A stretch of 64,000 nucleotides of DNA. Origin: Hypnocyclicus thermotrophus. Lineage in GTDB: Bacteria > Fusobacteriota > Fusobacteriia > Fusobacteriales > Fusobacteriaceae. The translations under genes were made by a program, and so were the position numbers. The stretch is from assembly GCF_004365575.1 (NCBI RefSeq), contig NZ_SOBG01000007.1:62001-126000 (forward strand), in the 5' to 3' direction. The notes beneath the pieces are model-generated. The model did not search any database. It saw nothing but the letters and a program-made list of their open reading frames with translations, and was not told the DNA's origin. This document shows, one piece after another, positions 15,151 to 55,368 of the stretch. Within the stretch, counting starts at the first letter, position 1, and every line of letters starts with the position of its first letter.

Positions 15151-15221
15151 ATTTATTTTTTTGATAAAAAATTATATAATATAAATAATTATATTATTTA
15201 AAATAAGGAAAGGTGAAAACC

Positions 15222-16931
15222 ATGAAAAAAATATTATTTTATTTAGCATCAATATTAGTATTTAGTAGTTGTGGGATATTTGATTTTTTTACAGAAAGTG
15301 TTACAAGTACAGCAACAAAAAAAGCTATAACATTATCAATAGATAATAATTCTAATAGTGCTTATGAAGCATATGCAATATTTACTAATGAAGAATATTA
15401 TTCATACGCAGGACAAATAAAAATAACAAGTAATAATATAAATAGCAGCTTAAATAATTATATGGCTAATTATAATATAAATACATTAGGGAATGATGAT
15501 ATTATAAAACATCCTGTATTTTATAATAATGGAAAATTGATAAGAGAAAAATCTATAGAAAATACCATCTCATATAATATTAGAGCTAGCATAACAAATA
15601 CAAGCTATACTGAAGGAAGTAAAGAAGAATTTTATGCATTGTATGCTGGAACAGGAGATTATTATAAAGAAAATAATGAATTAAATAAAAAACAAGCTAC
15701 TTTAAAAAAACAGGTAAATAATATTGAAGTAAAAGTAGAGAATAATAATTCTAGTACAAGAACATTAAATATATGGGTTGCAGATGATGTATGGGAAACA
15801 GTAGTAACTCAAGAAATGATAGATGCATTAGCGGATAAATTTTTAAAAACAGGATTTGATAATGATATATATGATTGGGTAACTAATATATATGGCGATG
15901 AATGGTTTGAAGGTAATGATGAATATACAAATACAATAGACGGAAATAAAGAAATAAATATATTAATTTATAATATAAATGAAGGGAATAATAGTAATGG
16001 TAGTTATTTAGGTTTTTTTGACAGTACACATAATTTTATAAATAATGAAAATAATAAATATTCTAATGAAAAAATAATGTTTTTTATAGATAGTGGAAAT
16101 CTAGCAAAAAAAGATGAGAATAGTAACTGGGATATAACTTATGTAGATAAAGAAGGTAAAGGGCCAGCAATTATATTATCAACATTAGCACATGAATTTA
16201 CGCATATGATAATATTTTATCAAAAATATTATAATCAAGATATAAATATAGATTCATGGATAAATGAGATGTGTGCCATGACTACAGAGGATATTCTAGC
16301 AAATAAACTTGGAATAAATAATCCGATAAATATACGACAAGACGAATTTTCATTATATTCAAATAGTTATCCAGTTAATGAATGGACAAACTCAACATTA
16401 CATTATGCTAATAAATATTTTTTTGGAGCATTTTTATTAAGAAATTTTGGAGTGGGAATATTTCATGATATTGCAACTAATGAATATAATGGAATTACAG
16501 CTATAGAAAAAGCTTTAGAAAAAAATGGATACAATATAAAATTTGAAGAATTATTAAAATATTGGGGAGAGGCTATATTAACATCAGATAAATATGAACT
16601 AGATTATGTTTATAGTAGTAAAGATTTATCTTATAATGGTATAACATATAGAGTAGCTCCTATAAACGTAGTAGATAATAAAAACTATAAAAATATAATA
16701 TTTTATGGACTTGATGATAGTAGTGCTCCAGATCTTGATCTTGGGGCTAATATTTATTATAAATTAACTCCATATTCAATAGTAAGTGATAGTGAATGGG
16801 ATATAACAATTCCTAGTGGAGTGGGAATAAATATTATTATTAAAGATTCTTTAGGGAATTTTAAAACAAAAGAATATTTTGAAGCAGAGGCGATAAAAAA
16901 CAATAATAATTTTATATTAGAAATAAAATAG
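15222..16931 (+). CDS. Zinc metallopeptidase lipoprotein (M30/hyicolysin-like)
   Basis: About 569 aa. The start is ATG 15222, since AAGGAAAGGTGA sits at the right distance and the GTG at 15213 is part of it. Lipoprotein signal MKKILFYLASILVFSSCG, so it is anchored in an outer leaflet. The zinc site is LAHEFTHMIIFYQ (HExxH) followed by SWINEMCAM, whose Glu fits the third ligand of the M30-type metallopeptidases. The rest is Asn/Ser rich with no clear domain; a C-terminal beta-rich section is likely. It is a surface or periplasmic protease of unknown target. ispG starts 9 bases later, so the two may share a transcript. Confidence 0.75.
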   Translation: MKKILFYLASILVFSSCGIFDFFTESVTSTATKKAITLSIDNNSNSAYEAYAIFTNEEYYSYAGQIKITSNNINSSLNNYMANYNINTLGNDDIIKHPVFYNNGKLIREKSIENTISYNIRASITNTSYTEGSKEEFYALYAGTGDYYKENNELNKKQATLKKQVNNIEVKVENNNSSTRTLNIWVADDVWETVVTQEMIDALADKFLKTGFDNDIYDWVTNIYGDEWFEGNDEYTNTIDGNKEINILIYNINEGNNSNGSYLGFFDSTHNFINNENNKYSNEKIMFFIDSGNLAKKDENSNWDITYVDKEGKGPAIILSTLAHEFTHMIIFYQKYYNQDINIDSWINEMCAMTTEDILANKLGINNPINIRQDEFSLYSNSYPVNEWTNSTLHYANKYFFGAFLLRNFGVGIFHDIATNEYNGITAIEKALEKNGYNIKFEELLKYWGEAILTSDKYELDYVYSSKDLSYNGITYRVAPINVVDNKNYKNIIFYGLDDSSAPDLDLGANIYYKLTPYSIVSDSEWDITIPSGVGINIIIKDSLGNFKTKEYFEAEAIKNNNNFILEIK

Positions 16932-39529: not shown

Positions 39530-39545
39530 CTCTCTTAAGTTTTTT
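39513..39545. terminator. Bidirectional terminator between convergent kinase genes
   Basis: A 9-bp stem AAGAGAGTT / AACTCTCTT flanked by A-runs on the left and a run of T on the right. It overlaps the 3' ends of both genes. Confidence 0.75.
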
Positions 39546-40344
39546 TTGTAATAGGAATGGTAAAACTAAATGAACTTCCAATATTAATAATACTAGAAAT
39601 TTTTAAATCCCCGCCTAATCTTTTAATAAAATCAATACATAAAATAAGACCAAGACCAGTGCCATCTTCACCATTTGTCCCACTAGTACTAGAAAATTTA
39701 AAATTATTTAATATTTTATTTATTTTTTCTTCTGATATACCAACTCCAGAATCTTTTATTGTGATAGTTACACAATTGTCTTTTTTTTCAGCTAAAACTT
39801 CAATTTTACCATTATTCTCAGTAAACTTTATTGCATTAGAAAGTAGATTTCGGATAATAGTTTTTAGCATGTTTTCATCAGTAATCATATAAATTTTTTT
39901 ATCTATAGAAGTATTTAAAGATATATTTTTGTTTTCAGCATTTAATTTAAGTATTTTCATTTGACTAGTAATAGCTTCTCTTAATTCAAATTCATTAGGA
40001 TTGAATTCAATTTGATTGAGGTGAGATTTTGCCCAATATAATAAATTTTCTAATAAGTTATAAGTAGTTTTTGAAGATTCTTTTAATTGTAAAAGAGTTC
40101 GTTCAATATATTTTTTTTCGACATCTTCACTATATAGTTTTATCAATAAATATTCTACTAAATTATTATAAGTAGCAATTTGCCCCATTAAGTCATGAGA
40201 AATAATTGAAAATATTTTTTCTTTTCTATGTTTTAATGCATAGATTTCATTTTTTAGTTCTTCATTTTCTTTTTTCAATAAATTATTTTTACCTATTAAA
40301 ACTTTAATTTTACTTTTTTTCCCCCTTAATAAATACCTAAACAT
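39535..40344 (-). CDS. Soluble histidine kinase without membrane segments
   Basis: 269 aa. A short basic N-terminus and a coiled coil (about 15-45) lead straight to a HisKA-like domain with IISHDLMGQIATYNNL, then HATPase with NLLSNAIKFT, DSGVGIS and GTGLGLILC. There is no sensor domain, so the signal must come through the coiled coil or a partner protein. GGGAGG precedes the ATG. No response regulator is encoded on its strand next to it; the orphan receivers at 1-308 and 11414-11788 are possible partners. Confidence 0.88.
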   Translation of the reverse strand: MFRYLLRGKKSKIKVLIGKNNLLKKENEELKNEIYALKHRKEKIFSIISHDLMGQIATYNNLVEYLLIKLYSEDVEKKYIERTLLQLKESSKTTYNLLENLLYWAKSHLNQIEFNPNEFELREAITSQMKILKLNAENKNISLNTSIDKKIYMITDENMLKTIIRNLLSNAIKFTENNGKIEVLAEKKDNCVTITIKDSGVGISEEKINKILNNFKFSSTSGTNGEDGTGLGLILCIDFIKRLGGDLKISSIINIGSSFSFTIPITKKT

Positions 40345-40417
40345 AAAACCTCCCGAGTACTAAAACAAAACTTTATGACTAATATTAGCATATTTTTTAA
40401 AAAAAATCAAAATATAA

Positions 40418-40447
40418 TTGACAAGTTTATAAAAAATATAGTATTCT
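40418..40447 (+). promoter_or_regulatory. Promoter of the 23-residue peptide unit
   Basis: Consensus TTGACA (40418-40423), an 18-base spacer and TATTCT (40442-40447). The only gene before the terminator at 40540 is the small ORF at 40468. Confidence 0.6.
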
Positions 40448-40467
40448 ATTTATAGGAAGGTGATAGT

Positions 40468-40539
40468 ATGAAATTTTTAAAAAGAGTTTGGAAGACGTTA
40501 GCATTTATGGTAATTTCAATGATAAATAATATAGAATAA
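40468..40539 (+). CDS. 23-residue basic hydrophobic peptide
   Basis: Starts MKFLKRVWKTLAF and ends in NNIE. The first nine residues carry four positive charges and are followed by a hydrophobic stretch, so a membrane-active or membrane-inserted amphipathic peptide is plausible. AGGAAGGTGA is correctly placed before ATG 40468. A consensus promoter lies upstream, and a strong terminator begins at the stop codon, giving a self-contained unit of about 100-120 bases of RNA. It could equally be a small regulatory RNA with a short reading frame. Function unknown. Confidence 0.55.
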   Translation: MKFLKRVWKTLAFMVISMINNIE

Positions 40540-40568
40540 AAAATTGGCTATTATATAGCCAATTTTTT
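40540..40568 (+). terminator. Intrinsic terminator after the small peptide gene
   Basis: An 11-bp stem AAAATTGGCTA / TAGCCAATTTT with loop TTATA and a T-run. On the minus strand it may also terminate the Cys-rich protein transcript. Confidence 0.85.
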
Positions 40569-40583
40569 ATTTTGAAATTAAAA

Positions 40584-40823
40584 TTAATAATCTTTTCCAG
40601 CTGCGAGAATATTACTTTTATCAAAAGCGTGACATGGAGTAACCCCATAAACCATCCCACAATGAGGACATTTAGACTCAAAAGTTTTCATTATAAAACT
40701 TTTTTGACATTCACAATCAATTTTTACAGGTAAAGGCATAGCTTGTCTTTCAAATCCCATCATTCTCAATTTATCAACTATTTGTTTTCCACTTTCAAAT
40801 TTTCCTGAACATCCTTCATGCAT
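40584..40823 (-). CDS. Small Cys-rich protein, probable metal binder
   Basis: 79 aa, no signal peptide. Six cysteines: Cys5 (EGCSG), Cys37 and Cys39 (DCEC), Cys52 and Cys55 (KCPHCGMVYG), Cys64 (TPCHAF), plus two nearby His. This looks like a zinc-ribbon or other metal site. GGAGG precedes the ATG. It is the last gene of the minus-strand cluster, 32 bases after the ABC ATPase. I do not recognise the family. A metallochaperone or adaptor role is suggested only by the Cys pattern and the neighbours. Confidence 0.75.
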   Translation of the reverse strand: MHEGCSGKFESGKQIVDKLRMMGFERQAMPLPVKIDCECQKSFIMKTFESKCPHCGMVYGVTPCHAFDKSNILAAGKDY

Positions 40824-45496: not shown

Positions 45497-45522
45497 AAAA
45501 TGAGAGTTTTGACTCTCATTTT
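45497..45522. terminator. Bidirectional terminator between convergent genes
   Basis: An 11-bp stem AAAATGAGAGT / ACTCTCATTTT starting at the stop codon of the coiled-coil protein gene and 9 bases beyond the stop of the 54-aa gene on the other strand. Confidence 0.78.
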
Positions 45523-45530
45523 AAATATAT

Positions 45531-45695
45531 CTAATTATTACTTCTTGCTACTTGAATTTCATTTAATACTTTTGCTAAAGCGACCCATTCATCTACATAT
45601 TTTTTATTAAAGGGGTTATTCTTTAGTTCAAATTCTACGGCATTTAATTCTTCTAAGTAAAGTTGTTCATAAAAAGTAAGTTTATCCATAAACAT
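45531..45695 (-). CDS. 54-aa acidic protein of unknown function
   Basis: Begins MFMDKLTFYEQLYLEELN and ends IQVARSNN. An excellent GGAGGTGG site lies 5 bases before the ATG, and a terminator follows the stop, so the short frame is very likely real. It is mostly helical and amphipathic, acidic, with no membrane segment or Cys. It lies alone between convergent and divergent neighbours. No family recognised. Confidence 0.75.
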   Translation of the reverse strand: MFMDKLTFYEQLYLEELNAVEFELKNNPFNKKYVDEWVALAKVLNEIQVARSNN

Positions 45696-45781
45696 GTAAA
45701 CCACCTCCAAATATTTGATTATATAAGGTGCTGCATATATATTATATGATAAAAATTAATATTTCCTTTAAAAATTTTTAT

Positions 45782-45810
45782 TTGTTACGATAATTAATAT
45801 ATAGGATAAT
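45782..45810 (+). promoter_or_regulatory. Promoter for the outer-membrane-barrel-like gene
   Basis: TTGTTA (45782-45787), a 17-base spacer and GATAAT (45805-45810), about 40 bases before the ATG. Confidence 0.5.
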
Positions 45811-45849
45811 ATTACTTTAAAATTAAAATTTAATTAGAAAGGAGAAGAT

Positions 45850-55251: not shown

Positions 55252-55261
55252 ATATTATTCA

Positions 55262-55281
55262 CCTCATAAATATTTACGAGG
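55262..55281 (-). promoter_or_regulatory. Hairpin covering the ribosome binding site of the 88-aa gene
   Basis: In the minus-strand RNA, CCUCGUAAAU pairs with AUUUAUGAGG (nine Watson-Crick pairs and one G-U), and GAGG at its 3' end is the Shine-Dalgarno. The CCUC arm would hide it. A melted stem or a bound factor would be needed for efficient translation. Confidence 0.45.
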
Positions 55282-55368
55282 AAAAATAAAAAATCCTTTA
55301 AATTAAAATAAGAAAATCTAAAAAAATTAGAATTTTATCAAAATATATAGAGTGATTAAATAATAAAC

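What the first reader, a model, noticed from the sequence alone, without database searches (positions are those of the whole stretch)
40418..40568. Self-contained transcription unit for a 23-residue basic hydrophobic peptide
A consensus TTGACA promoter, a good Shine-Dalgarno, a 23-codon frame and a strong terminator that begins right at the stop codon lie within 150 bases. The peptide has a cationic N-terminus then a hydrophobic stretch. It could be a membrane-active peptide, a toxin-like or signalling peptide, a kinase-modulating small protein (a soluble histidine kinase is divergent from it), or a small RNA.
Basis: partly seen in the sequence, partly recalled or inferred. Interest (0 to 1): 0.6.

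Follow-up and report, generated by a model that had tools for sequence, protein, structure and literature searches.

The report
Tiny conserved peptide gene beside kinase
This is very probably a real gene for a 23-residue, positively charged, greasy peptide, kept almost unchanged in the one known sister species next to a signalling kinase that has no membrane anchor; what the peptide does is still an inference.

Summary
At 40418-40575 (+) lie TTGACA-18-TATTCT, AGGAAGGTG, a 23-codon ORF (MKFLKRVWKTLAFMVISMINNIE) and a terminator. The promoter match alone is not above chance and the terminator is shared with the convergent gene, but promoter plus SD-led ORF appeared in 0 of 5000 shuffles. The only other genome of the genus (a Fusobacteriales MAG) keeps the unit in place: 21/23 residues and 68/72 bases identical, against 109/153 in the flanks. 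Changes fall at codon positions 1, 0, 3. The RNA body folds no better than shuffles. This favours a translated peptide over an sRNA. Nothing similar was found in the other 96 of 98 phylum genomes, nor in phages, plasmids, PDB, Pfam, NCBIfam, PHROGs or PADLOC. Most likely: a genus-restricted small-protein gene whose product sits at the membrane face. Its best candidate partner is the divergent histidine kinase (39535-40344), which lacks a membrane helix and is equally genus-restricted; that link is inferred (about 0.25). Toxin, pheromone and sRNA readings are weaker rivals.

The parts
40418..40423 (+). -35 hexamer TTGACA of the peptide gene
   Evidence: identical in sister genome
40442..40447 (+). 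-10 hexamer TATTCT (TATCTT with spacer 17 in sister)
40454..40462 (+). Shine-Dalgarno AGGAAGGTG
   Evidence: unchanged in sister
40468..40539 (+). 23-codon ORF, MKFLKRVWKTLAFMVISMINNIE
   Evidence: 21/23 residues kept in sister, E 1.9e-18 and 3.2e-18 in two genomes only, the profile being built from these two
40535..40571 (.). probably bidirectional intrinsic terminator shared with the convergent gene 40584-40823
   Evidence: transcript fold z -4.3, hairpin kept in sister
40382..40410 (-). probable promoter of the divergent kinase: TTGATT (40410-40405), 17 nt, TGC-TAATAT (40387-40382); its -35 lies 7 bp from the peptide's -35 (4 bp in sister)
   Evidence: read by eye; not tested
39535..40344 (-). 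269-aa histidine kinase without a membrane helix, H, N, G1 and G2 motifs present; candidate partner
   Evidence: HATPase_c 1.4e-23; alignment; max Kyte-Doolittle over 19 residues 1.17; only 2 of 61 family genomes at E<=1e-50

Best explanation
A monocistronic small-protein gene confined (so far as sampled) to one genus of Fusobacteriales. It gives an mRNA of about 120 nt (start near 40454, end near 40575) with almost no leader, translated into a 23-residue peptide of net charge +3. Its cationic N-terminal helix (MKFLKRVWKTL) and short hydrophobic stretch should place it on the inner face of the cytoplasmic membrane rather than across it. Most likely job (inferred, about 0.25): membrane-side partner or feedback regulator of the divergently transcribed kinase, which has no membrane helix of its own. 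Shown: sequence elements, conservation of frame, synteny, restriction to two genomes. Inferred: transcription, translation, membrane location, kinase partnership. The confidence given is for the real gene with a membrane-associated product, not for the kinase link.
For: Frame kept without indels, 21/23 residues, 68/72 bases versus 109/153 in the flanks 40345-40453 and 40540-40583 (Fisher p 4e-5; gaps counted as mismatch). Codon-position differences 1,0,3, expected for window genes 2.0,0.9,5.0 and for intergenic DNA 2.8 each; log-likelihood ratio 1.9 nats against the intergenic rate and 3.7 against the local flank rate. It is the only one of 13 intergenic ORFs of 15-59 aa in the window with ATG, SD and an open frame in both genomes. 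Promoter, SD and terminator all retained. Kinase and peptide are both found only in the two genus genomes. Among 26 ATPase-domain genes of the genome whose start could be read (some with little upstream left), only this one has a divergent SD-led ATG ORF.
Against: Only two genomes; four substitutions are few, and whole-CDS conservation against the average intergenic rate is weak (P 0.07). 171 of 871 other 72-nt intergenic windows are equally conserved, though 145 of these lie in one gap that hides a conserved 59-aa ORF. Membrane affinity is predicted from composition only: the 18-residue helical moment is reached by 411 of 5000 shuffles, and no full-length membrane helix is predicted. No direct evidence links peptide and kinase; the kinase model was poor (pLDDT 45).
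Confidence: 0.6

Rival explanations
1. Membrane-active or toxin-like peptide, for example a type I toxin held in check by an antisense RNA, or a secreted amphipathic lysin.
For: Short, cationic, hydrophobic product from its own promoter.
Against: No convincing antisense promoter: the 9/12 site on the minus strand (40472-40443) is the kind expected by chance. The predicted leader is too short for the translational control usual in such toxins (the usual layout is recalled). Single copy; no match in PADLOC or phage families. Amphipathicity not beyond shuffles.
Confidence: 0.15
2. Precursor of a peptide pheromone, arranged like streptococcal shp genes divergent from their cytoplasmic receptor, with the neighbouring kinase as receptor.
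For: Same size and layout as shp2/shp3 (22 and 23 aa, divergent from cytoplasmic Rgg receptors; PMC5167397, passages seen); the two residue changes between species lie at the C-terminus, where mature SHPs lie.
Against: The receptor candidate is a kinase, not an Rgg/RRNPP protein; the C-terminal changes are conservative and only two; export and re-import partners not tested.
Confidence: 0.1
3. Regulatory small RNA in which the ORF is incidental or secondary.
For: About 120-nt predicted transcript with a strong terminator; unit conserved.
Against: The body of the RNA without terminator folds no better than shuffles in both species (z 0.23 and 0.06); no Rfam match in the window; substitutions and indels spare the frame.
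Confidence: 0.1
4. Neutral remnant or chance ORF between two genes.
For: Only two genomes, small ORF, AT-rich gap.
Against: Combined features in 0 of 5000 shuffles; coding-like substitution pattern; CDS is the most conserved part of its gap.
Confidence: 0.08

Closest known systems
SHP pheromone precursors of Streptococcus (shp2/shp3 with rgg2/rgg3)
   Same: 22-23 residues, basic start then hydrophobic stretch, divergent from a cytoplasmic regulator gene (PMC5167397 passages)
   Different: Neighbour is a histidine kinase, not an Rgg receptor; different order of bacteria; no sequence relationship shown or tested; export and import not tested
Small membrane regulators of histidine kinases (MgrB, SafA, MzrA)
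   Same: Small membrane-directed protein proposed to act on a kinase; MgrB also has a short cationic N-terminus (PMC8404706 passages)
   Different: MgrB is 47 residues with a membrane helix and acts on a membrane kinase; here the hydrophobic stretch is short and the kinase has no membrane helix; no interaction shown
Type I toxin peptides (TisB, DinQ class; search listing only)
   Same: Short hydrophobic peptide with its own transcript
   Different: No antisense RNA gene identified, very short leader, single copy

Membership tests
Protein-coding small gene | Reading frame conserved between species beyond the flanking DNA | tested here: met
   68/72 vs 109/153 identical, no indels, positions 1,0,3; two genomes only
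Protein-coding small gene | Transcript and translation observed | not testable with these tools
   no RNA-seq or ribosome profiling on hand
SHP/Rgg (RRNPP) signalling pair | Adjacent Rgg/RRNPP receptor gene | tested here: not met
   divergent neighbour is a HATPase_c kinase, 1.4e-23
SHP/Rgg (RRNPP) signalling pair | Export, Eep processing and Opp import | not tested
   genome not searched for these
Type I toxin-antitoxin | Antisense RNA antitoxin overlapping the toxin mRNA | tested here: inconclusive
   only a chance-level minus-strand promoter match
Type I toxin-antitoxin | Membrane-spanning hydrophobic helix (usual for the membrane toxins of this type) | tested here: not met
   best 19-residue Kyte-Doolittle mean 1.03; the usual 1.6 cut-off is recalled
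Small histidine-kinase regulator (MgrB-like function) | Binds and changes activity of a kinase | not testable with these tools
   only co-location and co-restriction shown
Structured small RNA | Structure of the RNA body beyond shuffles | tested here: not met
   z 0.23 and 0.06; no Rfam match in the window

The most novel reading that the evidence does not exclude
A two-gene peptide-kinase signalling module: a 23-residue membrane-surface or secreted peptide is the input of a divergently encoded histidine kinase that lacks a membrane helix or recognised sensor domain, with back-to-back promoters that can hardly both be occupied, giving a feedback switch. This would be a peptide-sensing kinase design outside the Agr- and Rgg-type systems.
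Probability: 0.13. Interest if true: 0.6.

Novelty: new member of a known kind. Interest (0 to 1): 0.3.

Why it matters
Genes this small are generally missed by annotation. This one has a complete, minimal transcription unit and is easy to test. If it does act on the membrane-helix-free kinase beside it, it would add a new way for a cytosolic histidine kinase to receive a membrane or peptide signal.

Tried and rejected
Paralogues and distant relatives: the peptide search of 96 order genomes gave 10 places, two real; the other eight (E 0.22-1.43) were read. Most lie inside longer frames or lack a start. One, L046 (MKFLKKIWFVLAAFIFGVLSKQVHHLK), resembles it at the N-terminus but is near a contig end behind an unrelated gene, so homology is not shown. 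A two-row profile over 98 phylum genomes gave E<=10 hits in 64 of 98, but only two places below 0.01, the two sequences the profile was built from.

Empty site: 28 loci of the neighbouring 79-aa gene were scanned; none of the 26 outside the genus has a similar peptide within 600 nt downstream (limited to SD-led ORFs; a first script, missed most loci through a poor motif and is superseded).

DNA search hits elsewhere in the genome: one other hit was read, L003, and is AT-rich noise; the rest were not read individually. A leader-peptide or attenuator reading was rejected: the next gene downstream is convergent, so nothing lies behind the terminator to regulate. The first two-sequence alignment was made in the wrong orientation and is superseded. 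Kinase structure prediction was too poor to use. Viral contig pattern: 0 matches, with a pattern that finds only near-identical peptides. Related-kinase search in genome contigs: 13 loci, the sister MAG at 90% and then 36% or less; flanks of those distant loci were not examined. Small-protein and Fusobacterium literature searches: listings only, except passages of PMC11005410, PMC5167397 and PMC8404706; none was seen to mention this peptide, and its sequence was not searched for in print.

Full report
Observation. The gap 40345-40583 holds TTGACA (40418-40423), an 18-nt spacer, TATTCT (40442-40447), AGGAAGGTG (40454-40462), a 23-codon ORF (40468-40539) and a hairpin (40535-40571). Promoter matches in this AT-rich DNA are common: 14 found against 16.7 expected, and one of at least 10/12 is present in 1132 of 5000 shuffles of the gap. 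An SD-led ORF of 15-60 codons occurs in 25 of 5000, and promoter plus SD-ORF in 0 of 5000 (motif list chosen after seeing the site). The hairpin was listed on the minus strand, so it is probably shared with the convergent 79-aa gene 40584-40823; the 'strong terminator' is therefore not private to the peptide.

Where it is. The genome (2.2 Mb, 17 contigs) has one other genome held in its genus, G001, which the public record names as a Fusobacteriales MAG. The window aligns nearly end to end with one contig of G001 at about 88-89%.

Coding or not. In G001 the same gap has TTGACA-17-TATCTT, the same SD, MKFLKRVWKTLAFMVISMINDID and a hairpin with a changed loop. Identity is 94.4% in the CDS (68/72), 92.9% in the 14-nt leader, 80.6% in 40418-40453, 79.5% in 40345-40417 and 50% in 40540-40583; CDS against the last three gives p 4e-5 (gaps counted as mismatches, the leader left out). 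There are no indels in the CDS. The four changes are at codon positions 1 (one) and 3 (three); two are silent and two are N21D and E23D. Window genes predict 2.0, 0.9 and 5.0, intergenic DNA 2.8 each; the likelihood ratio favours coding by 1.9 nats (intergenic rate) or 3.7 nats (local rate). This is moderate, not overwhelming: four or fewer changes in all at the mean intergenic rate has P 0.07, and 171 of 871 other 72-nt intergenic windows are as conserved, 145 of them in the gap 45497-45849 that contains a conserved 59-aa ORF. Of 13 intergenic ORFs of 15-59 aa, five are open in both genomes; this is the only one of them that starts with ATG behind an SD. The RNA fold is explained by the terminator: z -4.3 and -3.7 with it, 0.23 and 0.06 without. 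Rfam has no match in the window.

Spread. Peptide relatives: 2 of 96 order genomes and 2 of 98 phylum genomes at a credible E-value. No match in phage or plasmid records, PDB, Pfam, NCBIfam, PHROGs or PADLOC. The 79-aa neighbour is found in 28 of 96 genomes, and none of the 26 loci outside the genus has a similar SD-led peptide downstream. The gene is therefore specific to this genus as far as sampled.

The divergent kinase. 39535-40344 (-) has a catalytic domain, SHDL, NLLSNAIKFT, DSGVGI and GTGLGL (the meaning of these motifs is recalled) and no hydrophobic stretch long enough for a membrane helix. At E<=1e-50 it too is found only in the two genus genomes of 61 in the family; beyond the sister MAG (90%) the relatives found in genome contigs are at most 36% identical, by a search that sought only two short motifs. 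Its probable promoter (TTGATT-17-TAATAT with TG before the -10, read by eye) puts the two -35 boxes 7 bp apart here and 4 bp apart in G001, so two polymerases could hardly sit there at once (inference). Among 26 ATPase-domain genes of the genome whose start could be read, of 30 loci examined and several with little or no upstream left in the stretch, only this one has a divergent SD-led small ORF. All this makes a functional pair plausible, but it is one inheritance event and not independent evidence.

Peptide. Net charge +3 (+2 in G001). Helical moment 0.82 over the first 11 residues; over 18 residues 0.49, reached by 411 of 5000 shuffles; best 19-residue hydropathy 1.03. It looks like a membrane-surface helix or a truncated signal peptide rather than a spanning helix (inference).

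Comparison. The layout is that of streptococcal shp genes (22-23 aa, divergent from a cytoplasmic receptor; PMC5167397, passages), but the receptor type differs, so it is not a member. Small kinase regulators such as MgrB (PMC8404706, passages) act on membrane kinases and have a membrane helix. Type I toxins (listing) need an antisense RNA that was not identified. Verdict: a real, genus-restricted small-protein gene (about 0.8), membrane-associated (about 0.6), partner of the kinase (about 0.25).

Noticed in passing
45531-45710 (-): An intergenic 59-aa ORF (probably starting at an internal ATG, MFMDKLTFYEQ...) is identical in 59 of 60 codons read as residues, stop included, between the two species; it looks like a further small gene.
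   Followed up: no
40584-40823 (-): A 79-aa cysteine-rich protein without Pfam or NCBIfam match is conserved in 28 of 96 Fusobacteriales genomes, downstream of an ABC-type ATPase, a CobW/HypB-like GTPase and a solute-binding protein with DUF1858.
   Followed up: partly
L010:191-1486: In the sister MAG the ATPase and the 79-aa protein form one 431-aa frame, whereas they are separate in the window; fusion or sequence error not resolved.
   Followed up: no
15213-16931 (+): The 572-aa ORF is unusually diverged for the window, with 113, 93 and 151 differences at codon positions 1, 2 and 3, suggesting rapid evolution, replacement or misalignment.
   Followed up: no
55252-55368: Intergenic stretch with only 44% of bases identical to the sister species in an otherwise well conserved window; part of it lies between two alignment blocks and so was counted as mismatch.
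   Followed up: no
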